DNA of 64,000 nucleotides, from NCBI RefSeq assembly GCF_900637515.1, contig NZ_LR134375.1, positions 2,051,001-2,115,000 of the forward strand, written 5' to 3'. The notes beneath the pieces are model-generated. The model saw only the letters and a list, made by a program, of their open reading frames with translations. It did not search any database and had not been told where the DNA came from. This DNA comes from Veillonella dispar. GTDB taxonomy: Bacteria > Bacillota > Negativicutes > Veillonellales > Veillonellaceae. How positions within the stretch are numbered: position 1 is the first letter of the stretch; every line of letters starts with the position of its first letter. A program made the position numbers and the translations under genes. This document shows positions 1 to 63,317 of the stretch, one piece after another.

Positions 1-501
1 GCGGGCTTCGTTATGGCCGCTGTCGTATCGGCGACACTTTCATCAGGCGCAGGCGACCTTTTAGGCGCTGCTACTGTATTTACCAAGGATATTGTGGAAC
101 ATCATTTTGGTAAAAGCCTCACTGATGCACAGCTCACAAATTATAGCCGTCTATGCGTGCTCTTCCTCGGCATCATCGCCATCGTTATCTCCCTCGTAAG
201 CAAAGCCATCATTCCAATGCTCGTATTTGCTTTCACCATGAGATCCGCTGGCCCATTCGCCGCATTCCTACTCGGCCTCACCTGGAAAAATGCAACAGCT
301 GGCGCTGGCATTTGGTCCATCGTGCTCGGCTCTATCGCAGGCGTGTACTGGGAATTCGTGGGCAATCCTTATGGCATTATGTCCATCATCTTTGGTTCCA
401 TCGTCAGCCTCATAGTCTTTGTAGCTGTCGTATGCATTGAAAGAGCCATGGGTAAACCACCGGCTCCACCGGCTATACCTGATGATGTAAAAGAAATGTA
501 A
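1..501 (+). CDS. Sodium:solute symporter (SSS) family permease, 3' part
   Basis: Partial gene: the frame is open from base 1, so its start lies left of the window. The 166 visible residues include about four membrane helices. The stretch LSSGAGDLLGAATVFTKDI, followed by a long hydrophobic helix, is the kind of sequence seen in the sodium-binding half of SSS carriers, which import small organic solutes with Na+. The tail is proline-rich and cytoplasmic-looking, ending in DDVKEM. The substrate cannot be read from this part. A strong terminator follows about 80 bases after the stop, so this is the last gene of its unit. Family assignment is from recognition; pantothenate-type or other organic-solute carriers are equally possible. 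Confidence 0.75.
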   Translation, partial: AGFVMAAVVSATLSSGAGDLLGAATVFTKDIVEHHFGKSLTDAQLTNYSRLCVLFLGIIAIVISLVSKAIIPMLVFAFTMRSAGPFAAFLLGLTWKNATAGAGIWSIVLGSIAGVYWEFVGNPYGIMSIIFGSIVSLIVFVAVVCIERAMGKPPAPPAIPDDVKEM

Positions 502-578
502 TCAATTTATTATAATCTGTAACTTAATAGTAGGTCTAAATCCTAAAAGTACTATCAAATTACAATTATAAAAACAAA

Positions 579-613
579 ACTCCTATCGGTTAAACCAATA
601 GGAGTTTTTTCTT
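579..613 (+). terminator. Rho-independent terminator after the symporter gene
   Basis: Eight-base stem ACTCCTAT / ATAGGAGT with an 11-base loop, followed directly by six T residues. It lies 78 bases after the stop at 501 on the same strand. Confidence 0.85.
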
Positions 614-798
614 ATTTTACAACGACATCCCCAAATTATGTGCCATACACACATCCATCATAATTTGACGATATATCATAACCTTACTATAATATAGATA
701 GATAGTCAGACGAGTAGTGACGTCAGGCTCATCTCACAAACTTAATAATATGTAGAAATGGCCTTTTCGTTTTATCTAATTTCCGAAGAAACGAAGGG

Positions 799-900
799 CT
801 ATTTTGCTATTTCTAGACAAATAAGCGCCACAAGTGCTCCAAAGGATATCATGACTGATAAAATCCCAAGGATAATCATAATGATTTTATAACCACTCAT
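799..900 (-). CDS. 33-aa hydrophobic peptide, holin-like toxin candidate
   Basis: A 33-codon frame with an ATG at 900 and a GGGAGG ribosome site 7 bases upstream. The peptide starts MSGYKIIMIILGIL and is one membrane helix with a short charged end (CLEIAK). Size, the 'M-polar-Y-hydrophobic helix' layout and the strong ribosome site match the small putative holin-like toxins (Hol_Tox family) of Firmicutes, which are type I toxin candidates kept silent by an antisense RNA. An imperfect GCCCTTCGTTT / AAACGAAAAGGC hairpin just past the stop (about 761-800) could end the transcript. No antisense promoter was identified with confidence. The gene stands alone between two terminators. Membrane toxicity is inferred only. 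Confidence 0.6.
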   Translation of the reverse strand: MSGYKIIMIILGILSVMISFGALVALICLEIAK

Positions 901-1028
901 AAGCAACCCTCCCTTCAAAAACGAAGAGAGGCCCAACCTCGTCCAACTATCCTAAGTCTATTATAGAACGAACTAATATACGATACAATAAGGAACGAAT
1001 AATAGAAATATATAGATAAATACAGTAA

Positions 1029-1056
1029 AGACCGTACCTAAAAGTACGGTCTTTTT
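1029..1056 (-). terminator. Terminator hairpin after the exported-protein gene
   Basis: Stem AAAGACCGTAC / GTACGGTCTTT with a six-base loop, immediately after the stop codon of the leftward gene ending at 1058. T residues lie on both sides, so it may work in both directions. Confidence 0.75.
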
Positions 1057-1057
1057 C

Positions 1058-2278
1058 TTATTTCTTTACTCTTTTATTACTAGCATGTCTTAGTTGCTTG
1101 GCATTTCCGAAGTCTAAGTATTCCATTATATTACGTAGTTCAATATGATTATACTTATTTTTACCATCTTCATAGGTAAGCGAAATATAGTATTCATATT
1201 TATCATCTGTAATCAGATGGAAAATACGAGATTTCTTACCTGGATTATATTGCTCCAAAAGATAAGAAGGAACACCATTATTCCATATTAAGGCTGCTTG
1301 AAGAGGTATATCTTTTACTAATATTGGATTCTTTTTATAGAAAAAATGTTTTAAAACAGTCTGAGTATACAACTGTATAGGCACAGCTTTATCTACTAAG
1401 GCACTACGTGCAACAACGAGTTTCATACCATCTCCAACATACACGCGACCTTGAAAGTTATCACTTTTTTCTTCCCTATCTAACATCATACCCTTAGGTA
1501 GTCGATAGGTTAGATTATCCCACGTAACAGTATCACTAGTTTTATCTAGATTATCTAATGTCTGCATAGAAGGAATTACAAAATTAGCCATTGTAGATTC
1601 TAACTTTTTTGTAACGGGCTGATTCTTATTGCCTAGGATTGCCATATACATCTGATTTGGGTATTGATCAAAAGTAACAGCTGCATACATTACAGGTAGA
1701 TTTCCATTCGAATATTTTTCTCTTATTCCCCAATAGCCTTTACTAATGCCCGGATACTTAAATTCCCCTTTACGTTGATCATTTCTATTAAATCCTGAAT
1801 CTTCAACTTGTTCATTAGCACCTACTAGACCAGCAATAACATTGTGTTCAAAAACATACGAGCCTTTACCCTTTTTATTTAAGTCCTCAAAATAACTTTC
1901 TACCACGGAAATAGGCAATGTCACTTTAGCCTTATAGTCACCTTCATGCAATAAAATTACAGTAGATTCATGCGTAATTAAATCCAAATACTTCGCATAG
2001 GCTTTTTTTAATTGCTCTGCCTTCTCTGCAGTACCTTTTTTCTTAAGAACCTCTCCATCAATCCTATTATTATACTCTTCTATTTTCTTAATGTGATCAG
2101 CAGTAGTAATATTGCGAGTCTTATCGTAACGATAGTTCTGATATGCATTATCTGGAATACTAGCATCAGCCCCTGGTACAGGCGGTTGTCCTTCAGGAAC
2201 AGTATACTGTGCCGCATTAATAGGCATGGTGAAAGCTAATGCTACAGCTAAGCTCAACAAAGTACTTTTTAGTTTCAT
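1058..2278 (-). CDS. Exported protein of unknown function, 406 aa
   Basis: No family recognised. The start is taken as the ATG at 2278 because GAGAGGTG sits 5 bases before it; an ATG six codons upstream has no such site. The first 23 residues are a clear Sec signal peptide (MKLKSTLLSLAVALAF, cleavage probably after INA). The mature part is hydrophilic, rich in Lys, Asn and Tyr, with no membrane segment, and has an N-terminal region likely to be helical (DHIKKIEEYNNRIDGEV) and a later beta-rich part. In a diderm Firmicute it would be periplasmic or outer-membrane associated. It is a single-gene unit between a long inverted repeat upstream and a terminator downstream. Confidence 0.75.
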   Translation of the reverse strand: MKLKSTLLSLAVALAFTMPINAAQYTVPEGQPPVPGADASIPDNAYQNYRYDKTRNITTADHIKKIEEYNNRIDGEVLKKKGTAEKAEQLKKAYAKYLDLITHESTVILLHEGDYKAKVTLPISVVESYFEDLNKKGKGSYVFEHNVIAGLVGANEQVEDSGFNRNDQRKGEFKYPGISKGYWGIREKYSNGNLPVMYAAVTFDQYPNQMYMAILGNKNQPVTKKLESTMANFVIPSMQTLDNLDKTSDTVTWDNLTYRLPKGMMLDREEKSDNFQGRVYVGDGMKLVVARSALVDKAVPIQLYTQTVLKHFFYKKNPILVKDIPLQAALIWNNGVPSYLLEQYNPGKKSRIFHLITDDKYEYYISLTYEDGKNKYNHIELRNIMEYLDFGNAKQLRHASNKRVKK

Positions 2279-5188: not shown

Positions 5189-5881
5189 TTATAAGGTTGC
5201 TCCCATTTGTTTGGAAATGGTTTGACCTAATGCCATCACGACAGATAAATACTCTTTGACACGCTCTTCCGTGTAGTCCCCTATAGGACCAGAGATTGTC
5301 ATCACCGCCTCAAGCTTATTGCCAAAGGAGAAAATAGGAACTGCGATGGATGCCGCATCAGGCACTCGATTGCCTCGTGTTACCACATACCCATCATGAC
5401 GAATTTGGGCGCTTTCACCAGCACTCATATCAGTATCATTGAAATCCCCTAGATAGGCACCGAAAATCTTGCCGGCCGCCCCTTTAAATATAGGGTAAAC
5501 CGTGCCAATCTTGATATCATGACGCAATGGCTTATCCGCCGCAACGCGCTCGATGCAAATGCGATAATCGCCCTGCGCCAAGAACAAATTCACCGACTGC
5601 TGCAACTGATCGCGGATAGCCACCATATACGGCTGCGCAATGGCACGCACATCCAAAGACGTAAGAAAGGACTTTGCCATGGGCAAAACACCCCAAGACA
5701 ACTGATACTTCTTGGCCCCGTTAAACTCAACCCAATGATGAGCCTCAAAGGTCTTGAGCAACCGATGAACCGTCGTCTTCGGCAACGCCGTCGCATTCGC
5801 CAACTCAGTTACACCAAGCGGGCCTGCCTCTAATAACTTGAGTATCTCAATACCACGCTCTATTGATTGAACCATATTCAT
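5189..5881 (-). CDS. IclR family transcriptional regulator
   Basis: About 230 residues. Residues 1-70 form the winged helix (SIERGIEILKLLE, then VTELANATALPKTTVHRLLK); the rest is the IclR effector-binding domain with the usual GTVYPIFKGAAGKIFGA segment and a Cys near residue 110 (CIERVAADKPLR). IclR proteins bind small acids or aromatic compounds and control adjacent catabolic operons. The gene lies directly upstream of the M20 amidohydrolase and carrier on the same strand, so these are the likely targets. The start is uncertain: ATGs at 5881 and 5875 and a TTG at 5887 are close together and none has a good ribosome site. Confidence 0.85.
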   Translation of the reverse strand: MNMVQSIERGIEILKLLEAGPLGVTELANATALPKTTVHRLLKTFEAHHWVEFNGAKKYQLSWGVLPMAKSFLTSLDVRAIAQPYMVAIRDQLQQSVNLFLAQGDYRICIERVAADKPLRHDIKIGTVYPIFKGAAGKIFGAYLGDFNDTDMSAGESAQIRHDGYVVTRGNRVPDAASIAVPIFSFGNKLEAVMTISGPIGDYTEERVKEYLSVVMALGQTISKQMGATL

Positions 5882-8419: not shown

Positions 8420-8476
8420 AGAACCATCAATATTCATAGTATAACTCCATATACTTTCACAAATATTAATGATTCT
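8420..8476 (-). terminator. Hairpin after cas2
   Basis: Long imperfect hairpin (AGAACCAT...AATATT / AATATT...ATGATTCT on the + strand) 62 bases past the cas2 stop. It separates the cas transcript from the array 1 leader promoter. The T-run is weak. Confidence 0.5.
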
Positions 8477-8813: not shown

Positions 8814-8814
8814 A

Positions 8815-9810
8815 TCAGTGAATCTCCAATGGCGTATACAAATCAACATCTTCGTGCATAATTGCACTAGCAAATTGCTTACATTGTTTGTAAATAGATT
8901 CACGATAGCTTTTACGATCATCAATATATTGATTTTCAGACCGAATTTTCTTATTATAGGCTGTTAAAAATACCTTACGCCCTTCTGCTGTCAAATAGCA
9001 GCCCTTGTCTGAGTTATCAAATTCGGCTAAATCAACCATATTACGACTCACCATAGATAACACCATGGAATCAATAATTGGAGCCCGCCATTCTTCAATC
9101 AAGTCAGATGCAAGGGCTGGATGTCCTTTAGCAAGACTATGCATGATACCCACAAATGGATGAAGACCGGCATTAATAACCCCTGCTAGGATTTCATTAA
9201 ACAGCATGCTGTATCCTAGCCCTAGCATAGCATTAAAGGGATCTCGAGGTGGTTGTTTTGTGCGTTTTGTGAAAGCAAAAGCAGATGGCACAATTTTGCC
9301 AAGTGCTTCAAAATACAAGCGACTAATTAATCCCTCATAGCCCATCAGCTCAGATACACGCATACATTCACCAATATGACTACGAACAGATTTAATATTG
9401 GCAATCTGTGCATCTATATTAATATCTTCTTCTAAATTACGTGCATAACGACGCAAGATAGTCAGCTGATTTCGCACCTTCGCCCGAATAATTTTACGTG
9501 ACATAGCCACTCTAAATGCATTATCATCTAATAAATCAAATTGCTTCTTATGTTTATTAATATCAATAGTATTAGTATTGATTAAAGTACCAAAATACTT
9601 TCCATAACCAGACAACCAGGTAATCGGTACGCCGCGTTCGATAAAATCTGTCACCAATGAGCTCGTTATAGATACTGAATCAAAGACAGTAATATCTTCA
9701 ATTCGCTCTAAAGGAACTTCGAACAACACTTCATTATTTCGACCAACTACCACATGACCACCGTCACGCTTGATAAACGATCCTGCTTCTGTAACATATA
9801 GGGATGACAT
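8815..9810 (-). CDS. cas1: CRISPR-associated integrase Cas1
   Basis: 331 residues. The N-terminal beta domain starts MSSLYVTEAGSFIKRDGG. The helical catalytic domain carries the metal-binding residues Glu159 (GYEGLISRLYFEAL), His224 (HPFVGIMHS) and Glu239 (ASDLIEEWRAP). All are intact, so the integrase should be active. It inserts new spacers with Cas2. AAAGGAGGCGACTCT precedes the ATG. A 98-base gap separates it from csm6 upstream, so it may have its own weak promoter. One GTGAAAGC word occurs inside the gene at 9269, the only one in the cas genes that I saw. No reverse transcriptase domain is fused, unlike some type III Cas1 proteins. Confidence 0.96.
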   Translation of the reverse strand: MSSLYVTEAGSFIKRDGGHVVVGRNNEVLFEVPLERIEDITVFDSVSITSSLVTDFIERGVPITWLSGYGKYFGTLINTNTIDINKHKKQFDLLDDNAFRVAMSRKIIRAKVRNQLTILRRYARNLEEDINIDAQIANIKSVRSHIGECMRVSELMGYEGLISRLYFEALGKIVPSAFAFTKRTKQPPRDPFNAMLGLGYSMLFNEILAGVINAGLHPFVGIMHSLAKGHPALASDLIEEWRAPIIDSMVLSMVSRNMVDLAEFDNSDKGCYLTAEGRKVFLTAYNKKIRSENQYIDDRKSYRESIYKQCKQFASAIMHEDVDLYTPLEIH

Positions 9811-9908: not shown

Positions 9909-11228
9909 CTATTGAATTTGATCTAATACATATTTGTTGATAGTATCGTAAATTAGTTTATTTTGTTTTTCTTGCCGAGCAATAATAAAGAACACATCTT
10001 TAATCTGATGTAAGAAAAATTGTAGTGATTGAATCTCTGCAGCACTACAAATATCCTGCTCAGTAAAGACAACAACCTCATGAGCTATTTTATTACGGAT
10101 TTTTCTCTCAATTCTACGTATCTCTTTTAAATGCTTCAATAAAGAACTATCTACTGTATCATAGTCTTCTAGCATATGTAACATATGATAAAAAGATACT
10201 TGAAGTTCTTGTAGATACGGAGTATCAGAGTTCTCCTGCCATGATTCATATAGTTTAGGATACTGATTTTTAAATGCTACCATGTCAAGGCGCATACCTT
10301 TAGATGTTTTTTTCTCAACTTGTCTCCAGTTTACATTGAGCTCTTTAGTGAAATAATACCGCATTAACTCATACATAAATGGAGTTGTTTTTAAAACAAA
10401 GTCCTCAATTTGACCTTGTTTTAACCGCACTTCCATAAGCATTAAAAACTCATGTAATTTTCGCAGTTCCTTATCAGTAAACAAAGAGGATAAAGATGTA
10501 GATCCTACTTTACGAGCCTTTTGTAAGGCATCATCATAGTTCAAGCCTAAACGTAATTGAGCATGTTCTAATAATGGTAACACATCATTAACAACATCAG
10601 ATTCAAAAGTTCTTTTATAGCTATGATAAGAACTTATAGCCTCTTTATATTTATAGCTAGTAATGAGTGTATGAAGGGATTGTTTAATATTATTACGCTT
10701 AATATATCCCATTTGAGGTTCATGGCATCGGTTTTCACTATCCTCTTGATCATCAAAATTATTTTCAATAACAAGTTCAATATCTTCGTCATCATTAACT
10801 GCCGGCTCAGAGCGGTTAGAACCACGCTGAGGACTATCAACTTGAATACCTCGTACCGCATCATGTTCCACGCTAAGATAAGACATAATTAACTTCATTT
10901 GAGGCGTACCGGAACTTAAGTTAATTAATATCTCTGCATCAGGATATGTTGAAAGTGTTTCATAGAAATGATCAACGAATGGTTGTAATACATCGATGCG
11001 ATGTACATCTTCAAGGCCTGTATGTATGATCTTGATATCTAAATCAGCTTTCACATGTTTTAAAGCCTTAGTAAATCTATGATTAGCAGCCTCCTTTTGC
11101 TCCATATCCTTACTCAATACAAGTATTGCCATATCAGGGTTATAATGTCTCACAATATGTAGCATGCCCCCATCATAGCAACCACGAATAGGATCTGTAT
11201 CCCCTACTGGGGTATAAAGAATTCTCAT
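9909..11228 (-). CDS. csm6: CRISPR-associated CARF-HEPN ribonuclease Csm6
   Basis: 439 residues. The N-terminal CARF domain (MRILYTPVGDTDPIRG, then LINLSSGTPQMK) should sense cyclic oligoadenylate made by Cas10. The C-terminal HEPN domain has the RX4H motif RNKIAH at residues 378-383, the catalytic Arg and His of this RNase family. An unusually acidic, Asn/Asp/Glu-rich linker (about residues 140-170) follows the CARF core. When Cas10 detects target RNA, Csm6 degrades RNA without sequence specificity. The start overlaps the cas6 stop (ATGA) and GTGAGG precedes it, so both are co-translated. Whether the activator is cA4 or cA6 cannot be decided here. Confidence 0.92.
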   Translation of the reverse strand: MRILYTPVGDTDPIRGCYDGGMLHIVRHYNPDMAILVLSKDMEQKEAANHRFTKALKHVKADLDIKIIHTGLEDVHRIDVLQPFVDHFYETLSTYPDAEILINLSSGTPQMKLIMSYLSVEHDAVRGIQVDSPQRGSNRSEPAVNDDEDIELVIENNFDDQEDSENRCHEPQMGYIKRNNIKQSLHTLITSYKYKEAISSYHSYKRTFESDVVNDVLPLLEHAQLRLGLNYDDALQKARKVGSTSLSSLFTDKELRKLHEFLMLMEVRLKQGQIEDFVLKTTPFMYELMRYYFTKELNVNWRQVEKKTSKGMRLDMVAFKNQYPKLYESWQENSDTPYLQELQVSFYHMLHMLEDYDTVDSSLLKHLKEIRRIERKIRNKIAHEVVVFTEQDICSAAEIQSLQFFLHQIKDVFFIIARQEKQNKLIYDTINKYVLDQIQ

Positions 11229-15379: not shown

Positions 15380-17935
15380 TCACTTTGTATCACGCATATA
15401 GTAAACAATGAGGTTGCAAGCTGTTAATAACGCTTTGCAATCTTCTTCTGATTGAATCCATCTATGAATAGCTGTAACAAAGTTTTTATATGATTCATAG
15501 GTAGGATTATTTTTCTTAGGTTCTAATCTAGCCAATAAATAGAGTATACGAGCCACATTAATATGTTTACCTAAGGCTCTATCATTTAAAACACCTTGTA
15601 GCAACTCCATTAGCTTATAAATCAGACCTTTACCCAATTTCATTTTGGCATCTTGTTTCTCATTAATACCTGGAATGACAAATAATTGATCTAGTGTATA
15701 AATTTTATCTTCAATAACATTATTAATAAGGTCATCCCATTTATATACATGACGACATATACGCTCTTCACCACTCGCATTTTTATTTGTTTCAAAACCA
15801 AATAAAGCGATACTATCTTTGCCATCATTGTCTTTAGCTACACTTTCAAGTAATCCTGTAATTGCTGCCATTTGGCTAATTGGATAAGATGGAGAGAATA
15901 AAGCTAAACCAGCAGACATAGTGATTTTATTATCTGTAACCTCAGCTAATTTCTCACGAATATCGATAGCTAGCTCTAACAATTCGTCCCATGCACCTAC
16001 AAGGAATACATCATCACCACCAGAATAAATAACGTGAATTTTTCTAGTCGTAACTTGTTTATTAGCCCAAATAGTAAATGGTGTAACAGATGTACCAAAG
16101 CCTTGTACATCACCTTGAGCCATTTTATTAACGGCAACCTTAAAGAACATTGCCAAATCACGAGATAGGTCAGCATAGCGTGATAATGTACCATATTTAA
16201 ATTTATCAGCGCCCTCAGAAATAAAGCCACCAATAAAGGCAGCACCAAGGTTATCTACGTCCGCTCGTAATACACCAAGTCGCTTAATACCTTTATCATC
16301 ACCGAATCCACTAGATGCGGCAAGTTCTTCAAATTCATAAACTTGACCATTATCCTTACGTGCTACATAATCTGCTAGCCAAATACGATTGAATACATTA
16401 TGTCCAGTTTTAGCTGTATTCTTAGAGTAAATTCTAAGAATCTCATGACTAGATTCAAACTTCTGTAATAATGATTCAGGAACAACATAAAGATATAGCT
16501 TCCCTTTATCCGCATCACTACTCAAATTGTTAACATATACTTCAACTTTAGGGATACTTTCACTATCATCACTAATATTAGGTCTAGCTAATACAAAGAC
16601 TGTATCTCGACCGTCGACAATTTGTTCCCCTAAACGATACAAGCCATTACAAATTGGACATGCCTCTGCATCAGTGTCCTTACCATAAGGAGATAGTGCT
16701 ACCGTTGAAGTATGACAAATGGAACATTCCCGTTCACCATGAAGAACCGTATTATACGTGCTATTTGGATTAAATAGATCTGCTAAATGTTGTTCAGAAT
16801 ATCGTTTAGACTTAGCCTCACCAACAGATTGGCTCACCTTACGGAATAATGCACGTTGCGACTGAATTAATTCTGCAGCTGCTGCTGTAGCAGAGCCAAG
16901 AGCTAAATACAATTTAGTACCAAATACTGTTAAGAACCATTCATTAATAGATTTCTCCATAGTTTCAATAGCAGTACTAGTTTTCGTCGTATTAGGTGCC
17001 AATATATAAAAATGACCGCCACCATTGTAAATAAGATTTGCCCGTGTTAACTGCAATGCATCTAACAACTCATCTACAATTTGTTCCATCAAAATTTCCA
17101 AATAGAATGAACGACCACGCAATGATTTCAATGCACCTTTAGACGGAATCGTATAAATAAAATTCTGGATACCAGAAATATCTCCAGATATAAGTCTAAA
17201 AGCTGGCATGTCACGGAACTTTTTAGAATTCTGATAACAGTATTCTTTATAATCAGTAATCTCCTGTTCCTCAAAGTAGTGCACCATACTATGTGCCACA
17301 GCAGCTGTTATCTTTGAGTGCATATACAAAGATATATCATTAGCTTGATCTGTTGCCGTACTAGATGGCATATAGGACACAGTGTCTTCATAAATTCTCA
17401 ACAACTCATTAACGGACATCTTATCGATTGGTTGTTGCTGAAAGTTCTGTACTAATACATCATATAGTGCCTTATACTTATCACTTGATGCACGTATAGT
17501 TTTATCATTTTCAGGATAATTAAAGTGATCAGATGCATCAATGCCACGTAGATAATATTGTAAAGGTTTATTGCTAGTGTTACCGCCAAATACACGGAAG
17601 ATTGATTGAAGTGGTAACTCTTTATTAAACTTCTGTGTAGCAGTACTCTCACCTTCATCAAGATCTCGACGATCTACAGCAGCAGCAATATTATCCGCTT
17701 CATACACAATGTATGCATAATCATCATTTTTTAGTTGAGCTGCACTAAGCTCTTTCCCATGATGATACTTTAAACAATGAGTAATACTTTGCTTCAAGCC
17801 CATATCGGAAAAATAGGGCTCGATGAAAGCAGCACCACGCTTAGAATGTGCATCAGTTCCCTGATTAGCACGATACACAACTTTGCCGATATCATGAAGC
17901 AATGCACCCTTTACCAGTGCATCCCATTTACCCAT
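15380..17935 (-). CDS. cas10: Type III-A Cas10 (Csm1), HD nuclease and oligoadenylate synthase
   Basis: 851 residues. Domains in order: HD nuclease with HDIGK (His15-Asp16) that cuts single-stranded DNA; a first palm-like domain; a zinc finger with CSIC and CPIC pairs (about residues 395-425); and the active palm domain with SGGDD (about 637-642) that makes cyclic oligoadenylates from ATP. All key residues are present, so both DNase and signalling activities should work. It is the large subunit of the Csm complex. GGAGGCGATGTG precedes the ATG at 17935; a GTG one codon upstream is an alternative. It is the first gene of the leftward csm unit, with a good promoter upstream. Confidence 0.97.
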   Translation of the reverse strand: MGKWDALVKGALLHDIGKVVYRANQGTDAHSKRGAAFIEPYFSDMGLKQSITHCLKYHHGKELSAAQLKNDDYAYIVYEADNIAAAVDRRDLDEGESTATQKFNKELPLQSIFRVFGGNTSNKPLQYYLRGIDASDHFNYPENDKTIRASSDKYKALYDVLVQNFQQQPIDKMSVNELLRIYEDTVSYMPSSTATDQANDISLYMHSKITAAVAHSMVHYFEEQEITDYKEYCYQNSKKFRDMPAFRLISGDISGIQNFIYTIPSKGALKSLRGRSFYLEILMEQIVDELLDALQLTRANLIYNGGGHFYILAPNTTKTSTAIETMEKSINEWFLTVFGTKLYLALGSATAAAAELIQSQRALFRKVSQSVGEAKSKRYSEQHLADLFNPNSTYNTVLHGERECSICHTSTVALSPYGKDTDAEACPICNGLYRLGEQIVDGRDTVFVLARPNISDDSESIPKVEVYVNNLSSDADKGKLYLYVVPESLLQKFESSHEILRIYSKNTAKTGHNVFNRIWLADYVARKDNGQVYEFEELAASSGFGDDKGIKRLGVLRADVDNLGAAFIGGFISEGADKFKYGTLSRYADLSRDLAMFFKVAVNKMAQGDVQGFGTSVTPFTIWANKQVTTRKIHVIYSGGDDVFLVGAWDELLELAIDIREKLAEVTDNKITMSAGLALFSPSYPISQMAAITGLLESVAKDNDGKDSIALFGFETNKNASGEERICRHVYKWDDLINNVIEDKIYTLDQLFVIPGINEKQDAKMKLGKGLIYKLMELLQGVLNDRALGKHINVARILYLLARLEPKKNNPTYESYKNFVTAIHRWIQSEEDCKALLTACNLIVYYMRDTK

Positions 17936-43323: not shown

Positions 43324-43359
43324 ACGGCTTTCACCTAGTATTTATAATTCGTCACCGAA

Positions 43360-43737: not shown

Positions 43738-43809
43738 CACAGTACCTCCGCTTTTTGTGAAAGTATCATTGCTATATTAGCTCATGTACTTAGTTGACTT
43801 AATATATCC

Positions 43810-47217: not shown

Positions 47218-47313
47218 GTATATTCCTTCCTATACAATCATTCAAACTCCAACACTTAATTATACCATTCTTATTGTGAAAGTTAAATGACTGCATACAA
47301 TTTAATTTAATAA

Positions 47314-48567: not shown

Positions 48568-48787
48568 AGTCTATCCTTGTTACTTAACATAACAGTAAAA
48601 GCGCAGCCCGTAGACTACGCTTTCACCGTGGATTGTAAATTGTATTTACATTATACAGAATTGCTATCGATTTGTCATTACTAAATTTACATAATTCGAT
48701 ATCAAATTTAATATACCAATTATGATATTTAATTAAAAATCCACTATATATAGTAATTACGTAGTAATAAAGAGTATATAGTTATCC

Positions 48788-49923: not shown

Positions 49924-50694
49924 TTATTTAGCTTTTGATGCTTTAATTACTTCTTTAGCTAATTTAGTATATACATCAGCACCCTTAGATTTTGGATCAT
50001 ATACGATAATTGGTTCACCATAACTTGGCGCTTCGCTAAGACGTACATTACGAGGGATAATAGTCTTATATACTTTATTGCCAAAAAATTTTTTCACTTC
50101 ATCAGCAACTTGAATAGATAAATTTGTACGACCATCAAACATAGTTAACAAGACGCCTTCAATTTCAAGGTCTTTATTAGATGTTTGTTGCACAATTGTT
50201 ATGGTTTTTACTAATTGGCTAACCCCTTCTAATGCGTAGAATTCACTTTGAATTGGAATTAATACGCTATCTGCTGCTGTGAAAGCATTTAATGTTAGTA
50301 AACCAAGGGATGGCGGACAGTCAATAATAATGAAATCGTACTCATCGCGTACCGGTGCTAATGCTTTTTTCAACATTGTTTCACGTGAAACAACGGAAAC
50401 AAGTTCCACTTCTGCACCAGCCAATTGAATCGTTGCAGGCGCTACAAATAGCTTTTTAAGCATTGTAGGCTGAACAATATCAGCAATAGGTTCACCATCG
50501 ATTAGAACATCGTGTACACAGAGTTCTAAATCATCTTTTTCAATGCCTAAACCAGAGCTAGCATTACCTTGTGGATCTAAATCAACAAGCAATACTTTCT
50601 TACCAGCATCAGCCAAACAAGCGCTCAAATTCACGGATGTTGTTGTTTTACCAACACCGCCTTTTTGATTAGTAATAGCTATAACTTTGCCCAC
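49924..50694 (-). CDS. parA: Chromosome partitioning ATPase ParA (Soj)
   Basis: 256 residues. Deviant Walker [14 protein letters not shown] (about 10-22), Walker A' [11 protein letters not shown], and Walker [10 protein letters not shown], the standard ParA/Soj set. As a DNA-bound ATP dimer it interacts with ParB-parS to separate origins. Start is GTG at 50694 after GAGGTGAATTAA. A perfect parS site lies inside the gene (50377-50392). Neighbouring rsmG is 5.3 kb upstream, separated by the metH-metF genes, so the usual gidB-parA-parB block is interrupted here. Confidence 0.96.
50377..50392. promoter_or_regulatory. parS: parS site 1 (inside parA)
   Basis: Perfect 16-base palindrome TGTTTCACGTGAAACA, the consensus ParB-binding site. 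Confidence 0.97.
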
Positions 50695-52421: not shown

Positions 52422-54857
52422 ATGTATATATTTGACGGTGCTATGGGCACAATGCTTCAAGCTGCAGGCTTAGAAGAGGGCTATTGTCCCGAATTATTTA
52501 ACGTAGAAAAACCAGAAGTAGTAAAGAATATTCACGCCCAATACTTACAACATGGCAGTGATGTTATCACTACAAATACATTCGGTGCTTGTGGTCTTAA
52601 ATTAGAAGATTACGACTTACAAGATCGTGTAAGAGAAATTAATATTGCCGCTGTAAAGGTAGCAAAAGATGCTATTGCAGAGTTTAAACCATCTGCACGT
52701 GTAGCCGGTTCTATGGGTCCTACGGGTCGTTTCTTACAACCATTGGGCAACATGAGCTTTGACTCTATTTATGACACATACCGCGAACAAGCTGAAGCAT
52801 TGATCGAAGGTGGCGTAGATTTCATCATCATTGAAACTATCATCGACGTACAAGAAATGCGCGCCGCTTTATTAGCATCTCTTGATGCTCGTGAAGCAGC
52901 AGGAAAGACAAAAGAAGATGTACAAATCATCTGTCAATTTTCTTTCAGTGAAGACGGTCGTACTATTACAGGTACACCACCAGCAGTTGCAACTACTATC
53001 GTAGAGGCTATGGGTGCTGATATTATTGGTATTAACTGTTCCCTTGGACCTGAACAAATCACACCTCTTATTGAGGAAATTGCAAGCGTAACAAACTTGC
53101 CAATTATCTGCCAACCAAATGCAGGCATGCCTCAATTAATCAATAAACAAACTGTATTCCCACTTACAGCAGAAGAAATGGGTCCATTGATGCTTCCAAT
53201 CGTAGATGCAGGTGCAAGCTATGTAGGCGGCTGCTGTGGTACAACACCAGCTCATATTCAAGCAATTTCTGACGCTGTAAAAGCACATACACCTAAGGAA
53301 CGTGCTCACGTAGAACCTAAAACAATCATTACTAGCCGTACTAAATTGTTAGAATTAGGTCACAATACAAAACCTCTTATCATTGGTGAACGTATCAATC
53401 CTACAGGCCGTAAAGTTCTTGCTCAAGAGTTACGCGATGGCTCTTTCATCCGCGTAAAACGCGATGCTTTGGACCAAGTAGAAGCAGGTGCAGACATCCT
53501 CGACGTAAACATGGGCGTAGCTGGTATGGACCAAACTCCATTGATGGAACGTGCTATCTTCGAATTATCCATGCTCGTTGAAACTCCATTGTCCATCGAC
53601 ACATTGGATCCAGCAGCTATGGAAGTAGCTCTTAAAAACTACCCAGGTCGCGCTCTTATCAACTCCGTAAATGGGGAAGAGGAGTCCATCACTCACGTTA
53701 TGCCTTTGGCTAAACGCTATGGTGCAGCTTTACTTTGCTTGCCAATCTGCAGTGGTGATTTGCCTGAAAAAGCAGAGGACCGTGTTGCTTTAGCTGAAAG
53801 CATCGTAAATCGCGCTTATGGTTATGGTCTTCAACCACATGACTTATTACTTGATCCATTGGTATTAACACTTGCCAGCGGTGAAGATAGTGCACGTCAA
53901 ACATTGCGTACATTACAGTTATACAAAGAGAAATTTGGCTTCCCAACAGTAATGGGCTTGTCCAATATTTCCTTCGGTATGCCTCAACGTCCTTACTTGA
54001 ACGGCCAATTCTTAACAATGGCTCTTGCTTGTGGCTTAACAACACCAATTATGAATCCATTAAACTATCCAGCTAAAAAAGCGTTCGTATCTAGTACAAC
54101 ACTATTAGGCTGGGACCCAGGTTCTGCAGAGTTCATCAAAGAATACGGCTACGAAGATGAAACAAGTGCTCCTGGTAATGCTGCTCCAAAAGGTCCTGAA
54201 AAGAAATCCTTCGACAGCAATGATCCTTTAGCGAATATCCGTGCTTGTGTAGAACAAGGCGAAAAAGAAGCTATTGTTGACCTTGTGAAAAAAGCGTTGG
54301 CTGACGGCATGGACCCATTAGATATTACGAAAAAAGGCTTATCTGAAGCGATGAATGTAGTAGGGGATAAATTTGGTTCTGGTAAATTATTCTTGCCACA
54401 AGTAATGCTCGCTGCCGAAACAATGCAAGCTGCTTTCAACACTATTAAAGAAATCATTCCTGCTAGTGAAAGCTTGGATAAAGGTACAGTCGTTGTGGCA
54501 ACCGTTAAAGGCGATATCCATGATTTAGGTAAAAACATCGTAGCAGCCTTGCTTGAAAACAATGGTTACAAAATCGTCGACCTTGGCAAGGACGTTGATC
54601 CAGAGGTCATCGTTCAAGCGATTAAAGACAATAAGGCAGCTCTCGTTGGTATTTGTTCCTTGATGACTACAACAATGCCTCAAATCGACAATACTATCGC
54701 TGCTATCCGCGCTGCAGGCCTTAAAACTAAGGTTATGGTTGGTGGTGCCGTAGTTTCTCAAGACTACGCAGACCAAGCGGGCGCAGACATCTATGCTAAA
54801 GACGGTATCGCTGCCGTTAACCACGCAAATGATTACTTTGAAACATTAGAAAAATAA
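52422..54857 (+). CDS. metH: Cobalamin-dependent methionine synthase, core without reactivation domain
   Basis: 811 residues versus about 1,200 for E. coli MetH. Domains in order: homocysteine methyltransferase (1-300) with zinc ligands GINCS and GGCCGT; pterin/methyl-THF binding (about 310-560; IGERINPTGRK, DVNMG); B12 cap (about 600-680); and B12-binding domain with DIHDLG, where His700 ligates cobalt. The reactivation domain is on the separate upstream gene. Start ATG 52422 is favoured because AGGAAG lies 6 bases before; an ATG two codons upstream overlaps it. It makes methionine from homocysteine using methyl-THF from MetF downstream. Confidence 0.95.
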   Translation: MYIFDGAMGTMLQAAGLEEGYCPELFNVEKPEVVKNIHAQYLQHGSDVITTNTFGACGLKLEDYDLQDRVREINIAAVKVAKDAIAEFKPSARVAGSMGPTGRFLQPLGNMSFDSIYDTYREQAEALIEGGVDFIIIETIIDVQEMRAALLASLDAREAAGKTKEDVQIICQFSFSEDGRTITGTPPAVATTIVEAMGADIIGINCSLGPEQITPLIEEIASVTNLPIICQPNAGMPQLINKQTVFPLTAEEMGPLMLPIVDAGASYVGGCCGTTPAHIQAISDAVKAHTPKERAHVEPKTIITSRTKLLELGHNTKPLIIGERINPTGRKVLAQELRDGSFIRVKRDALDQVEAGADILDVNMGVAGMDQTPLMERAIFELSMLVETPLSIDTLDPAAMEVALKNYPGRALINSVNGEEESITHVMPLAKRYGAALLCLPICSGDLPEKAEDRVALAESIVNRAYGYGLQPHDLLLDPLVLTLASGEDSARQTLRTLQLYKEKFGFPTVMGLSNISFGMPQRPYLNGQFLTMALACGLTTPIMNPLNYPAKKAFVSSTTLLGWDPGSAEFIKEYGYEDETSAPGNAAPKGPEKKSFDSNDPLANIRACVEQGEKEAIVDLVKKALADGMDPLDITKKGLSEAMNVVGDKFGSGKLFLPQVMLAAETMQAAFNTIKEIIPASESLDKGTVVVATVKGDIHDLGKNIVAALLENNGYKIVDLGKDVDPEVIVQAIKDNKAALVGICSLMTTTMPQIDNTIAAIRAAGLKTKVMVGGAVVSQDYADQAGADIYAKDGIAAVNHANDYFETLEK

Positions 54858-54884: not shown

Positions 54885-54956
54885 GTGAAAGCTCATCTTA
54901 AAAACTTATTTTGATGGTAAAAACCACGTAAAAGATTAAACATAATTAGCTTTCAC
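54885..54956. repeat. Inverted pair of GGTGAAAGCT words between metH and metF
   Basis: GGTGAAAGCT at 54884-54893 and its complement AGCTTTCACC at 54948-54957, 54 bases apart with AT-rich sequence between. One of several inverted pairs of the same word in the window. Confidence 0.75.
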
Positions 54957-55987: not shown

Positions 55988-56740
55988 TTAGATTAATGGC
56001 TTATCTTTAATTTCTTTTGGTTTACGTGGGTATTGTTTAGGTGTTTTACCTGTTTTCTTAATGTACAGGATTGCCCGTTTATCATCCAAAGTTGGAAGTG
56101 TAACAGTACGTACTTCTTCAATCTTAGCTTTCAATGTGCTAAGGGCTTTATTGGATTCTCCCACTTCTTCTTCGTAGATGGCGCCTTTTAAAGCAATAAC
56201 GTAGCCACCTTCTTTTACATATGGTACAGTCCATTCTAACAGAATAGGTAATCTCGCTACTGCACGGCTCGTAGCAATATCGAAGCTTTCACGGTAATCT
56301 TGATGACTAAGATCCTCTGCACGGCCATGTAAAGTAGTACAGTTCGTCAATTGTAGCTCATCCATAATGGATTCAAGGAAGGTAAGACGTTTTTTCAAAG
56401 AATCAAACAACGTAACCTTTAGACTACGGTCGTAGATGGCCAATGGAATGCCCGGGAAACCAGCTCCAGTACCAACGTCAATAATGGACATACCAGATTT
56501 AATGATATGTGGGTCATAGCAGGAGAGGGAGTCGATCATGTGTTTAACCACAACCTCTTTCATGTCTGTAATACCCGTGAGGTTGAGATATTTATTTGTT
56601 TCAATCATGCGCGCATAATACACGTAAAAGTCTTTTGCTTGCTCTTCTGTACAAAGCAAACCAAATTGGCTCATTTGCTCCATCATATATGAAACAAATT
56701 CAGACTCAGGTGCAATAGGCACATCGTATTTTTCTTTCAT
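55988..56740 (-). CDS. rsmG: 16S rRNA (guanine-N7) methyltransferase G
   Basis: 250 residues. SAM-binding motif SIIDVGTGAGFPGIPLAI, then KVTLFDSLKKRLTFLESI and TSRAVARLPILLEWTVPYVK, as in RsmG (GidB). It methylates G527 of 16S rRNA; loss in other species gives low-level streptomycin resistance. AGGAGTACTT precedes the ATG. The C-terminal tail is Lys/Pro rich (KTGKTPKQYPRKPKEIKDKP). Separated from mnmG by a vapBC pair on the other strand. Confidence 0.95.
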   Translation of the reverse strand: MKEKYDVPIAPESEFVSYMMEQMSQFGLLCTEEQAKDFYVYYARMIETNKYLNLTGITDMKEVVVKHMIDSLSCYDPHIIKSGMSIIDVGTGAGFPGIPLAIYDRSLKVTLFDSLKKRLTFLESIMDELQLTNCTTLHGRAEDLSHQDYRESFDIATSRAVARLPILLEWTVPYVKEGGYVIALKGAIYEEEVGESNKALSTLKAKIEEVRTVTLPTLDDKRAILYIKKTGKTPKQYPRKPKEIKDKPLI

Positions 56741-60024: not shown

Positions 60025-60137
60025 ATCAATTGAATTCCTTATATTTGTTACTTATCTTATTGTGAAAGTATATTTTATTCAAAACTACGAGGCAAAATAT
60101 CTCAGGGTCCAGTTCCTCACTGTGAATTTTCTTTGGG

Positions 60138-61523
60138 TTATTTGCCAAGGCAGAAACGACTGAATAGTTCGTCGATCATGCTTTCACGGATGGTGTCGCC
60201 TGTGATGTCGCCTAGTAGTTCCCAGGCGCTGCGCAGGTCGGTAGCTACAAAGTCTACTGGCATGCCCATGTCGATGGAGGAGAGGGCTTGTTCAACTTGA
60301 GCCTTCGCTTGTTCCATGAGGCTGATGTGGCGCACGTTACTGATCATGGCGCTGTTGTCTTGTTTTACGCGACCGCCGTAGACGAGTTCTTGCACCCATT
60401 TGGAGAGAACTGCAGAGCCTTCGCCTTCTTTAGCACTGATGCGTTCGATAGCCGTAAAATTTCCGTGTTCTTTAATATGTTCGTCTGTAACGACTTGTGC
60501 CATATCGGACTTATTGAGGAGTACGATAGTATTCAAACCGCTCACAGAGGTCAAAATTTCGATTTCTTCAGGGGTTAATGGAGTAGACCCGTCGATAACG
60601 CAGAGCACGATGTCTGCTTTGTTGATATAATCACGAGCACGCTCTACACCGAGGGCTTCTACCGTATCTTGAGTATCGCGAATACCTGCCGTATCGATGA
60701 GGCGCAGAGAAATGCCTTCTACAGTCATATATTCTTCAATACTGTCCCGCGTCGTACCAGGAATATCCGTTACAATGGCGCGGTTTTCACGCAAGAGAGC
60801 GTTCATAAGGCTCGATTTACCTGCGTTCGGACGACCTACAATAACCGTCGTAATACCATCGCGAATGAGTCGTCCTGTATTCGCTGTGGACAAGAGATCA
60901 TCCATAGCTTTCAAAATAGGCTCTAGCTGTTCACGAACCTCTTGGCTCGTTACATCCTCAATATCCTCTTCAGGATAGTCGATAGTTACCTCTAAATGGG
61001 CAATCATAGCGATGAGCTGTTCACGCACATCTTTTACAAAGGATGAAACGGTCCCATCTAGCTGCGATACAGCGAGGGAGAGGGAGTCCTCCGTTTTTGC
61101 TTCAATAATATCAATAATCGCCTCTGCTTGGGTGAGGTCGATGCGTCCGTTCATAAAGGCGCGCTTCGTAAATTCGCCGGCTTCGGCCATGCGCACATCG
61201 TGATTTACGAGCAATTTCAGAATTTGTCGAACCGGCACAATACCGCCGTGACACTGAATTTCTACTACATCCTCTGCCGTGTAGGAATGAGGGCCTTTCA
61301 TTAATAATACAAGAACCTCGTCGATGGTCTTGTTCGTTCCGGGATCCACAATGGTCCCATATTGTATCGTTCTATTTTGGCGGTCCATCAAAGGAACGGT
61401 GCCAGCGCTCTTGAACAGGCTATTTACAATAGGAAAACTATCCTTGCCGCTGACCCGAATAATACCAACCCCGCCGATACCGGGCGGCGTCGCAATGGCC
61501 GCTATTGTATCATCTATATACAT
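60138..61523 (-). CDS. mnmE: tRNA modification GTPase MnmE
   Basis: 461 residues. N-terminal THF-binding domain (DTIAAIATPPGIGGVGIIRV), helical domain, inserted GTPase with GRPNAGKSS, DIPGTTRD, DTAG and NKSD, and the C-terminal CLGK with the Cys (FCLGK) that is conserved in the family. It works with MnmG on tRNA U34. GGAGATATGT precedes the ATG. Full length with no defect seen. A GCTTTCAC word lies near the 3' end (60181). Confidence 0.96.
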   Translation of the reverse strand: MYIDDTIAAIATPPGIGGVGIIRVSGKDSFPIVNSLFKSAGTVPLMDRQNRTIQYGTIVDPGTNKTIDEVLVLLMKGPHSYTAEDVVEIQCHGGIVPVRQILKLLVNHDVRMAEAGEFTKRAFMNGRIDLTQAEAIIDIIEAKTEDSLSLAVSQLDGTVSSFVKDVREQLIAMIAHLEVTIDYPEEDIEDVTSQEVREQLEPILKAMDDLLSTANTGRLIRDGITTVIVGRPNAGKSSLMNALLRENRAIVTDIPGTTRDSIEEYMTVEGISLRLIDTAGIRDTQDTVEALGVERARDYINKADIVLCVIDGSTPLTPEEIEILTSVSGLNTIVLLNKSDMAQVVTDEHIKEHGNFTAIERISAKEGEGSAVLSKWVQELVYGGRVKQDNSAMISNVRHISLMEQAKAQVEQALSSIDMGMPVDFVATDLRSAWELLGDITGDTIRESMIDELFSRFCLGK

Positions 61524-61579
61524 ACATATCTCCGTATTTCGATTATCTAGTATTTGCTTTTGTATATGTTCTTCGCCTG

Positions 61580-61636
61580 TGAAAGTTAAACTAAACTAAT
61601 CTTTGCATGCGAAGATTAACTTAGGTTAGCTTTCAC
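61580..61636. repeat. 57-base near-palindrome made of two GTGAAAG words
   Basis: GTGAAAGTTAAACTAAACTA, then ATCTTTGCATGCGAAGAT, then TAACTTAGGTTAGCTTTCAC: almost fully self-complementary around a central GCATGC. It lies between jag and mnmE, past the jag stop. It could be a terminator without a T-run, or a pair of uptake-like words in inverted arrangement. Confidence 0.75.
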
Positions 61637-61712
61637 CATAACCTAAAGAATAAAGAGGACAGCCCTCAAGCAACCGATAACCTCAGTTACTTGAAAGCTG
61701 CACCACTATATT

Positions 61713-62501
61713 TTATTTTTTGTACATAATCACAACGTGACGGAACGGTTCGTCCCCTTCACTGTTAGTAACAACGTTTTTGTCGCCTTGAAGGGCAGTG
61801 TGAATGATTTTACGTTCAAAAGCATTCATTGGTTCTAAGGAAACCTTTTGACGGTTGCGTTTCACCTTAGAAGCCAAGCGTTTCGCGAGATTTACCAATG
61901 TTTCTTCTCGGCGAGAACGATAGTTTTCCACATCTACAACGATATGGCAGTGGCCAGATACATCCTTATGAGCCACGAGATTTGTTAAGTATTGAATAGC
62001 ATCCAATGTTTGACCATGTTTACCGATCAAAATACCCAAATCTTCGCCGTGTACTTGGAATGTAATCTTATCTTTAGTCATCATTTTTTCGATAACCACA
62101 GTGAGGCCCATTTGAGTAAACATATCATCGAGGAATTGTTTACCTTTTTCAGCGATTTCTTGTTGATCTTCTTTTGAAAGTTCCTTTTTAGAAGGTTTTT
62201 CTTCTACAGAAGCTTCAACTGCTGTGTCTTCTACTTCTGTTTCAGTTGTTGCCACCGGCTGGGAAGCAACAGCTACAGATTGTTCTTCTACATGAGCTAC
62301 TTCTTCTTGAGTAGCAGTTTTAGCTACAGATGTGAAGAATAAGCGAACAACTGCTGGTTTACGACCAATGCCCAAGAAGCCATTAGAAGGTTGTTCCAAG
62401 ACTTTAGTTTCTACCAATTCTTGGCCTTCTGCAGCCAATTGAGCTACGCCTTTGGCAATGGCATCTTCAATGGTTTTAGCAGATACATCGATAAATTCCA
62501 T
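61713..62501 (-). CDS. jag: RNA-binding protein Jag / KhpB
   Basis: 262 residues. Jag_N domain (1-56; IDVSAKTIEDAIAKGV), an acidic linker (57-115) rich in Glu, Val and Thr, a KH domain (about 125-195; ILIGKHGQTLDAIQYL), and an R3H domain (about 200-262; ERKIIHTAL with Arg and His). It binds RNA, usually with KhpA, and affects cell division and envelope genes in other Firmicutes. AGGAGACACT precedes the ATG; it starts 9 bases after yidC. Part of the rnpA-yidD-yidC-jag unit. Confidence 0.94.
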   Translation of the reverse strand: MEFIDVSAKTIEDAIAKGVAQLAAEGQELVETKVLEQPSNGFLGIGRKPAVVRLFFTSVAKTATQEEVAHVEEQSVAVASQPVATTETEVEDTAVEASVEEKPSKKELSKEDQQEIAEKGKQFLDDMFTQMGLTVVIEKMMTKDKITFQVHGEDLGILIGKHGQTLDAIQYLTNLVAHKDVSGHCHIVVDVENYRSRREETLVNLAKRLASKVKRNRQKVSLEPMNAFERKIIHTALQGDKNVVTNSEGDEPFRHVVIMYKK

Positions 62502-62509
62502 AGTGTCTC

Positions 62510-63178
62510 CTATTTCTTAGCTTCTAAGCCTTTGTAAATGAAATGTTGTTGCACAAATTGGAATACATTGGATACGATCCAGTAAATAACTAAGCCAGAT
62601 GGGAAGTTAAGGGAAATGTAACCAATGAATAAAGGCATAAAGATTGTCATAATCTTTTGTTGTTGCGCAGCAGCACCAGATGCACCGCTACTAGTTTGCT
62701 TGGACATAATCCATGTGGATGCCGCACTCAATACTGGCAAGATGTACATTGGATCTGGTTCGCCAAGACTAGGAAGCCATAAGAATTGTACATAGTTTTG
62801 ATCGTATGGATAGCCTTGTAAAGCATAGAAGATAGCGATCAAGAATGGCATTTGCACCAATAGAGGCAAGCAGCCTGCTAATGGGTTAACGCCCATTTCT
62901 TTGTACAATGCACCCATTTCAGCTTGAAGTTTTGCAGGATCGTTTTTGTATTTGTCTTGCAATTCTTTCATGCGAGGCTGTAACTCTTGCATAGCCTTCA
63001 TGGATTTGATTTGTTTTACAGTAAGTGGTGCCAAAATCGCTTTGATAACGATTGTTAAAAGGATAATAGCCACACCGTAGCTTGGATAGCCTACCATTTG
63101 AGTTAATTGGAACGCATAGGTTACCAATGTAGTCATCAATTCAACGATAGGGTGGAATATACTACTTAAGAATTCCAT
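62510..63178 (-). CDS. yidC: Membrane protein insertase YidC
   Basis: 222 residues, the short Gram-positive-like form without the large periplasmic domain of E. coli YidC. Five membrane helices are visible, with the hydrophilic hairpin TVKQIKSMKAMQELQPRMKE between the first two core helices and NPLAGCLPLLVQMPFLIA in the middle. It inserts small membrane proteins alone or with SecYEG. No lipoprotein signal. AAAAAGGAGAAACA precedes the ATG. Same operon as rnpA, yidD and jag. Confidence 0.95.
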   Translation of the reverse strand: MEFLSSIFHPIVELMTTLVTYAFQLTQMVGYPSYGVAIILLTIVIKAILAPLTVKQIKSMKAMQELQPRMKELQDKYKNDPAKLQAEMGALYKEMGVNPLAGCLPLLVQMPFLIAIFYALQGYPYDQNYVQFLWLPSLGEPDPMYILPVLSAASTWIMSKQTSSGASGAAAQQQKIMTIFMPLFIGYISLNFPSGLVIYWIVSNVFQFVQQHFIYKGLEAKK

Positions 63179-63300
63179 TGTTTCTCCTTTTTCTTACAGT
63201 CCGAAACCGTCCTTTGCGCATCTATATATCGTTATGGTATGGTCTAAATTTCATCCATACAGATGCTCAGGTATTTCCAAAACTGTGCTCGATGGTTTTT

Positions 63301-63317
63301 GTGAAAGTTGCTTTCAC
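63301..63317. repeat. Tight inverted pair GTGAAAG-TTG-CTTTCAC
   Basis: Two copies of the repeated word, inverted, with three bases between, in the yidD-yidC gap, where no T-run follows. See the finding on this word. Confidence 0.75.

What the first reader, a model, noticed from the sequence alone, without database searches (positions are those of the whole stretch)
230..63317. GTGAAAGC is strongly over-represented on both strands: candidate DNA uptake sequence
A by-eye scan found about 40 copies of GTGAAAG or its complement, of which about 28 extend to GTGAAAGC, usually preceded by G or T. Base composition predicts roughly 8 and 2. Copies occur in both orientations, in genes and gaps, and several form inverted pairs in gaps (54885/54950, 61580/61630, 63301/63311) plus a perfect palindrome GTGAAAGCTTTCAC at 28506. 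Balanced orientation and inverted intergenic pairs are what uptake sequences show in Neisseria and Haemophilus; Chi-like words would be strand-biased. Veillonella parvula is known to be naturally competent.
Basis: partly seen in the sequence, partly recalled or inferred. Interest (0 to 1): 0.85.

Follow-up and report, generated by a model that had tools for sequence, protein, structure and literature searches.

The report
Candidate Veillonella DNA uptake sequence
An eight-letter DNA word, GTGAAAGC, is scattered hundreds of times over both strands of nearly all Veillonella genomes but is no commoner than chance in the Veillonella prophages examined and rare in other acquired DNA, which suggests that these mouth bacteria use it as a 'self' tag when they take up DNA, something so far known in only two bacterial families.

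Summary
GTGAAAGC occurs 30 times in the window against about 1.5-2 expected, and 430 times (212+/218-) in the 2.12-Mb Veillonella genome against 66-86; it is the most over-represented 8-mer there. Codon use does not explain it: coding DNA holds 353 copies against 92 after synonymous-codon permutation, gaps 77 against 6-8. The consensus is TKGTGAAAGY. It is enriched in 14 of 15 Veillonella genomes and one sister genus, and nowhere else among 251 genomes of the class. Copies are 2.6 times better conserved than letter-permuted words. The word is at background level in Veillonella prophage DNA and rare in islands. Counts are nearly strand-neutral, unlike Chi or KOPS. New here is a symmetric, nearly four-fold fall in density from origin to terminus. 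In V. parvula SKV38, three of four published PCR constructs that transformed worse than genomic DNA lack GTGAAAGC, so the published argument against an uptake sequence fails; the fourth carries one copy without visible benefit, so those data prove nothing. Best reading: an uptake sequence (about 0.6), the third known and the first outside Proteobacteria. Uptake bias itself is untested.

The parts
229..236 (-). GTGAAAGC, TGGTGAAAGCAA, in gene
2229..2236 (+). GTGAAAGC, TGGTGAAAGCTA, in gene
5411..5418 (-). GTGAAAGC, TGGTGAAAGCGC, in gene
9269..9276 (+). GTGAAAGC, TTGTGAAAGCAA, in gene
11047..11054 (-). GTGAAAGC, ATGTGAAAGCTG, in csm6-like gene
18608..18615 (+). GTGAAAGC inside a CRISPR spacer
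24640..24647 (+). GTGAAAGC, CTGTGAAAGCAG, intergenic
25440..25447 (-). GTGAAAGC, TTGTGAAAGCCG, intergenic by the home-made gene calls (inside ORF 25055-25969)
26706..26713 (-). GTGAAAGC, TGGTGAAAGCAT, in gene
28506..28513 (+). GTGAAAGC, left half of palindrome GTGAAAGCTTTCAC
28512..28519 (-). GTGAAAGC, right half of the palindrome
28926..28933 (+). GTGAAAGC, ATGTGAAAGCTA, intergenic
30435..30442 (-). GTGAAAGC, AGGTGAAAGCAG, in FeFe hydrogenase gene
31102..31109 (-). GTGAAAGC, TTGTGAAAGCTT, intergenic by the home-made gene calls
31787..31794 (-). GTGAAAGC, AGGTGAAAGCAG, in gene
32556..32563 (+). GTGAAAGC, CTGTGAAAGCAA, in gene
34460..34467 (-). GTGAAAGC, CAGTGAAAGCGA, in gyrA
36594..36601 (+). 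GTGAAAGC, TTGTGAAAGCTG, intergenic
37759..37766 (-). GTGAAAGC, TGGTGAAAGCGT, in sfsA-like gene
39554..39561 (-). GTGAAAGC, TTGTGAAAGCTT, intergenic
43327..43334 (-). GTGAAAGC, AGGTGAAAGCCG, intergenic
48619..48626 (-). GTGAAAGC, CGGTGAAAGCGT, intergenic
50279..50286 (+). GTGAAAGC, CTGTGAAAGCAT, in parA
54466..54473 (+). GTGAAAGC, TAGTGAAAGCTT, in metH-like gene
54885..54892 (+). GTGAAAGC, left arm of inverted pair between metH-like and MTHFR genes
54949..54956 (-). GTGAAAGC, right arm of the inverted pair
56285..56292 (-). GTGAAAGC, CCGTGAAAGCTT, in gene
60180..60187 (-). GTGAAAGC, CCGTGAAAGCAT, in mnmE
61629..61636 (-). GTGAAAGC, right arm of inverted pair/hairpin between mnmE and jag
63310..63317 (-). 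GTGAAAGC, right arm of short hairpin
8453..8460 (-). variant GTGAAAGT (TTGTGAAAGT)
16556..16563 (-). variant GTGAAAGT, in cas10 gene
30799..30806 (+). variant GTGAAAGT (TGGTGAAAGT)
37178..37185 (+). variant GTGAAAGT (TGGTGAAAGT)
43177..43184 (-). variant GTGAAAGT (TTGTGAAAGT)
43757..43764 (+). variant GTGAAAGT (TTGTGAAAGT)
47276..47283 (+). variant GTGAAAGT (TTGTGAAAGT)
60062..60069 (+). variant GTGAAAGT (TTGTGAAAGT)
61579..61586 (+). variant GTGAAAGT, left arm of hairpin with 61629
63301..63308 (+). variant GTGAAAGT, left arm of hairpin with 63310

Best explanation
TKGTGAAAGY (core GTGAAAGC) is the DNA uptake sequence of Veillonella. Proposed mechanism: a DNA-binding component of the competence type IV pilus (the gspE/pilT/gspF/pilin/pilD/minor-pilin locus whose deletion abolishes transformation in V. 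parvula SKV38) binds the word and so favours uptake of kin DNA. Recombination of preferentially imported fragments then enriches the word in shared chromosomal DNA, on both strands, in and between genes, by molecular drive, and leaves prophages and other foreign DNA near background. The denser origin-proximal half would follow if donor DNA from growing cells is richer in origin-proximal fragments. Shown here: genome-wide enrichment, strand neutrality, independence of codon use, lineage restriction, conservation, background level in prophages and scarcity in islands, and presence of the competence genes. Inferred: recognition, uptake bias, the receptor, and the cause of the gradient.
For: Top 8-mer of the genome: 430 against 66-86. 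Coding 353 against 92 after synonymous permutation; intergenic 77 against 6-8. Present in all five stop-free reading phases. Strand-neutral: 212+/218-, 56% on the leading strand, while composition would predict 54 leading against 18 lagging. Enriched in 14 of 15 Veillonella and 6 of 6 genomes of genus g3, near control level elsewhere in the class. Conserved 33/67 against 18.9% for permuted words at 78.5% identity. Rare in islands (0.037 against 0.29 per kb) and at Markov level in Veillonella prophage DNA (2 in 62.5 kb against 2.2 expected and 18 at the host rate). ComEC and GspE-type ATPase genes in all 29 family members. V. parvula prefers genomic DNA over PCR product and plasmid (PMC5397411); three of four PCR constructs lack GTGAAAGC.
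Against: No uptake data exist. Density (0.2 per kb; 0.34 counting GTGAAAGT) and enrichment (5-6 fold, 10-12 fold in gaps) are below the roughly 1 per kb quoted for Neisseria and Haemophilus. The origin-to-terminus gradient is not mentioned in the passages on uptake sequences read here and suits a chromosome-organising site at least as well. The one construct with a GTGAAAGC (79 bp from its end) was reported in the same 10-fold-lower class as those without. No receptor is identified: the FimT-like candidate has no family match and its model matched no pilin in the PDB.
Confidence: 0.6

Rival explanations
1. The word is the binding site of an intracellular chromosome protein (nucleoid organisation, replication control or segregation) whose targets are concentrated around the origin.
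For: Density falls symmetrically from origin to terminus: 68/50/39/23/30 and 80/52/37/22/29 per distance bin on the two arms, with a flat expectation of 13-14 per fifth; G010 shows low counts near its terminus. Strand neutrality fits a protein-bound site. The window itself carries parS-like sites with parA and parB.
Against: The word still exceeds expectation about three-fold in the terminus fifth (41 against 13). It sits mostly inside genes (82%) without promoter preference. Background-level counts in prophage, scarcity in islands and restriction to two genera need extra assumptions. No such protein is known to me.
Confidence: 0.2
2. The word is a Chi-like recombination hotspot or a KOPS-like orienting sequence.
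For: Short, over-represented, conserved, in genes and gaps.
Against: Such words point along replication; here 56% lie on the leading strand although composition alone predicts about 75%. Another word, TGATGCGG, shows the expected 81% bias and is enriched in prophage DNA as well. KOPS-like words should be dense at the terminus; the opposite is seen.
Confidence: 0.08
3. Regulatory or RNA element (transcription-factor half-site, terminator stem, RNA motif).
For: Three intergenic inverted pairs in the window fold into stable hairpins; one perfect palindrome.
Against: Genome-wide, close pairs are near chance (28 against 24), intergenic density is not promoter-biased (tandem 0.66, divergent 0.59, convergent 0.28 per kb) and about 80% of copies are within genes on either strand.
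Confidence: 0.05
4. By-product of codon pairs, composition or a dispersed repeat.
For: Many copies read GTG AAA GCN (Val-Lys-Ala) or NGT GAA AGC.
Against: Synonymous permutation leaves only 92 of 353; gaps hold 10-12 times expectation; copies share at most a 10-bp core, with no longer repeat unit; genera g2 and g4, with the same competence genes, lack the enrichment.
Confidence: 0.02

Closest known systems
Neisseriaceae DNA uptake sequence (DUS, receptor ComP)
   Same: Short non-palindromic word, abundant on both strands without orientation bias, in genes and gaps, over-represented in core DNA, scarce in acquired DNA, itself highly conserved (PMC2397512, PMC1939737); competence by type IV pilus.
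   Different: Unrelated sequence; one fifth to one third of the quoted density; graded from origin to terminus; inverted pairs not enriched; competence genes but no uptake bias or receptor shown; host is a diderm Firmicute.
Pasteurellaceae uptake signal sequence (USS)
   Same: Same genomic behaviour; most copies inside ORFs; tolerated near-matches around a rigid core.
   Different: Different core (AAGTGCGGT or ACAAGCGGT in PMC12616744); no extended AT-rich flanks seen around GTGAAAGC; lower copy number.
Chi sites (RecBCD/AddAB)
   Same: Octamer-sized, over-represented, conserved.
   Different: Chi is oriented with replication (own knowledge); GTGAAAGC is nearly neutral.

Membership tests
DNA uptake sequence (DUS/USS) | Preferential uptake or transformation of DNA carrying the word | not testable with these tools
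   Needs a bench assay; published PCR against genomic DNA data (PMC5397411) do not discriminate.
DNA uptake sequence (DUS/USS) | Strong genomic over-representation not due to composition or codons | tested here: met
   430 against 66-86; coding 353 against 92; intergenic 77 against 6-8.
[quoted passage not shown]
   212+/218-; 56% leading, less than composition predicts.
DNA uptake sequence (DUS/USS) | Enriched in core DNA, scarce in acquired DNA | tested here: met
   0.29 per kb shared, 0.037 per kb in islands of 3 kb or more; prophage 2 in 62.5 kb, which is background level. Small samples.
DNA uptake sequence (DUS/USS) | Word conserved above its surroundings between species | tested here: met
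   49% against 18.9% for permuted words.
DNA uptake sequence (DUS/USS) | Host naturally competent with pilus-type uptake machinery | tested here: met
   comEC and GspE-type ATPases in all 29 genomes; competence itself from PMC5397411.
DNA uptake sequence (DUS/USS) | Sequence-specific receptor (ComP-like minor pilin) | tested here: inconclusive
   FimT-like minor pilin candidate with invariant C-terminal GRIR in five species, but no family match and no pilin match of a pLDDT-70 model.
Chi / KOPS | Strong leading-strand bias | tested here: not met
   56% leading against 81% for TGATGCGG.

The most novel reading that the evidence does not exclude
Veillonella and a sister genus evolved a third, independent DNA uptake sequence, the first outside Proteobacteria, and its density gradient records replication-dependent gene dosage in donor DNA, so that molecular drive is strongest near the origin.
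Probability: 0.45. Interest if true: 0.85.

Novelty: new variant of a known kind. Interest (0 to 1): 0.72.

Why it matters
[quoted passage not shown] A third, unrelated system in a diderm Firmicute would show that uptake sequences arise repeatedly, would offer an explanation for V. parvula taking genomic DNA 10-100 fold better than PCR products, would help genetics in a hard-to-manipulate genus, and would make the molecular-drive theory testable through the origin-to-terminus gradient and the sister lineages with competence genes but without the word.

Tried and rejected
Searches for an alternative dominant word in 200 kb each of g2 and g4 found none comparable. A one-mismatch search of G007 and G016 listed only perfect copies and was not informative. 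CRISPR arrays against phage records gave nothing from Veillonella, three spacers against IMG/VR gave nothing, and a host stretch against plasmids gave no match. The FimT-like structure model matched no pilin. A profile hit to EccE3 (E about 0.001) was treated as chance because it is an unrelated secretion-system protein. Rejected: codon use, repeats, terminators, Chi/KOPS.
Full report
OBSERVATION. GTGAAAGC occurs 30 times in the 64-kb window (11+, 19-); 100 dinucleotide shuffles gave a mean of 1.5 and a maximum of 5, and Markov models of order 2-3 give 2.0. The window is G000:C1:2051001-2115000 of a 2,116,915-bp single-contig genome, next to the origin: it carries parA, parB, parS-like palindromes, mnmE, jag and the membrane-insertase gene. 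The competence locus is 96.9% identical to Veillonella sp. T11011-6 over 21 kb, so the genus is Veillonella.

GENOME-WIDE. I read the genome as 20-kb stretches (three 5-kb blocks are masked). GTGAAAGC is the most over-represented 8-mer at Markov orders 2, 3 and 4: 430 copies against 69, 66 and 86; the reversed word occurs 4 times. Synonymous-codon permutation within genes leaves 55 sense and 37 antisense copies where 214 and 139 are observed; intergenic DNA holds 77 against 6-8. Copies fall in all five stop-free reading phases and in gaps. Gene calls came from a simple home-made caller that missed some genes (comEC, for example), so coding and intergenic shares are approximate.

MOTIF. Flanks in gaps alone give T at -2 (59%), T or G at -1 (74%) and C or T at the eighth position (82%), with little beyond: TKGTGAAAGY, a 10-bp element. 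GTGAAAGT is also enriched (289 in all; intergenic 82 against 10). In gaps, most single changes in the inner TGAAAG drop to background, while changes at the first G, and G to A at position 3, remain 2-3 fold enriched, as expected for one recognised core with tolerated near-matches.

STRAND AND POSITION. The word is 56% on the leading strand, while strand-specific Markov models predict 54 leading and 18 lagging; observed 242 and 188. A Chi or KOPS would do the opposite. Density falls from origin to terminus in parallel on both arms (68/50/39/23/30 and 80/52/37/22/29; p about 4e-21) with a flat compositional expectation. TKGTGAAAGC falls from 72 copies in the first fifth to 13 in the last. GTAAAAGC and CTATCGAT show no gradient; TGATGCGG shows a weaker one. 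Sampled tiles of G010 agree loosely. Close pairs are near chance (28 against 24; 19 inverted, 9 direct), and there is no promoter or terminator preference, so the hairpins in the window are not a general arrangement.

PHYLOGENY. Fourteen of 15 Veillonella genomes carry 362-548 copies of GTGAAAGC, G007 only 103; all six genomes of sister genus g3 carry 273-369; genera g2 and g4 and the other families of the order are far lower. TKGTGAAAGY across 251 Negativicutes genomes repeats this: 199-401 in Veillonella except G007 (50), 149-211 in g3, near the reversed-word control elsewhere. Named genomes: V. parvula SKV38 411, V. rogosae 432, V. denticariosi 548. ComEC and GspE-type ATPases are present in all 29 family members, so competence genes do not require the word.

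CONSERVATION AND FOREIGN DNA. Between G000 and G010 (78.5% identity) GTGAAAGC is kept at 33 of 67 aligned sites, against 18.9% for permutations of its letters; GTGAAAGT at 17 of 37; C/T exchange at 15 sites. In G010, shared DNA has 0.29 copies per kb, islands of 3 kb or more 0.037. The 19-kb island is a podovirus-like prophage. With two IMG/VR relatives (82-91% identical portal) it gives 2 copies in 62.5 kb: Markov expectation 2.2, host shared-DNA rate 18. The word is thus at background there rather than avoided. TGATGCGG is enriched in the same phage DNA (8 against 1.5), so background level is not general for host-enriched words. The window's own CRISPR-Cas block (7200-23800) has 3 of the 30 copies (p = 0.03).

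PUBLISHED TRANSFORMATION DATA. Knapp and colleagues (PMC5397411) found that V. parvula SKV38 takes genomic DNA 10-100 fold better than PCR products and plasmid worst, and argued that an uptake sequence was unlikely because 2 kb of chromosomal sequence should contain one. They found no word of 10 bp or more with at least 100 copies and left shorter words open. Locus L177 is the SKV38 competence locus. Mapping their primers: Red (10311-11230 plus 16939-17884), Yellow and Green constructs contain no GTGAAAGC; Orange (8483-11230 plus 16939-19606) has one, about 79 bp from its end. SKV38 has one copy per 5.2 kb on average, so the '2 kb must contain one' argument fails. Orange, however, was in the same 10-fold-lower class as Yellow and Green, so the data do not positively support the word; fragment length and homology remain possible causes. 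The primer listed for the Green construct's left end appears misprinted, so its left boundary is approximate, and SKV38 primer sites carry up to two mismatches. In G000 the equivalent recA construct would contain one GTGAAAGC in a poor flank; SKV38 recA was not read.

RECEPTOR. The locus encodes two ATPases, a platform protein, a ComGC-like major pilin, a prepilin peptidase and several small proteins with pilin-like N-termini. One (L177:14256-14714) ends in GRIR, invariant in five species; FimT of Legionella binds DNA through a C-terminal GRxR (PMC8897410). No family profile recognises it, and a model at pLDDT 70 matched no pilin. It is a lead, not a finding.

MECHANISM. Best reading: an uptake sequence enriched by biased import and recombination. 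Everything up to 'a conserved, strand-neutral, lineage-specific word enriched in shared chromosomal DNA' is shown; recognition at uptake is inferred. The main rival is an intracellular origin-weighted site. The decisive assay is uptake of matched fragments.

NOVELTY. Searches of the paper library found no uptake sequence or mention of this word for Veillonella; the library lacks most subscription papers and all preprints. A 2025 paper names only Neisseriaceae and Pasteurellaceae as families with such sequences.

Noticed in passing
genome G000 (stretches L001-L104 plus window): TGATGCGG: 262 copies against 36-72 expected, 81% on the leading strand, and enriched in Veillonella prophage DNA too (8 against 1.5): a candidate Chi-like word.
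   Followed up: partly
genome G000: The reversed word CGAAAGTG is strikingly rare (4 copies against 17-43 expected) and is also low in other Veillonella genomes; unexplained.
   Followed up: no
window 7200-23800: Type III-A CRISPR-Cas locus (Cas10, Csm6) with three arrays, about 54 repeats in all, and a GmrSD-type restriction gene between two of them.
   Followed up: partly
window 22260-22300 and 22413-22453: The same CRISPR spacer occurs twice within one array, part of a 112-nt stretch repeated at 99% identity.
   Followed up: no
window 50372-52395: Four parS-like palindromes TGTTTCACGTGAAACA around parA, near parB.
   Followed up: no
window 61579-61636: Long stable hairpin between mnmE and jag whose outer arms are GTGAAAGT/GTGAAAGC (-24.5 kcal/mol, z -6.1).
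   Followed up: no
window 48788-48835: Eight tandem ATTGCT hexamers just beside the parB gene, possibly a slippage-prone site.
   Followed up: no
L176 and L178: V. rogosae and V. denticariosi do carry the competence locus that the 2017 paper could not find in them.
   Followed up: yes
L166:1-19123: Podovirus-like prophage in Veillonella genome G010, with close relatives in IMG/VR (L254, L255).
   Followed up: partly
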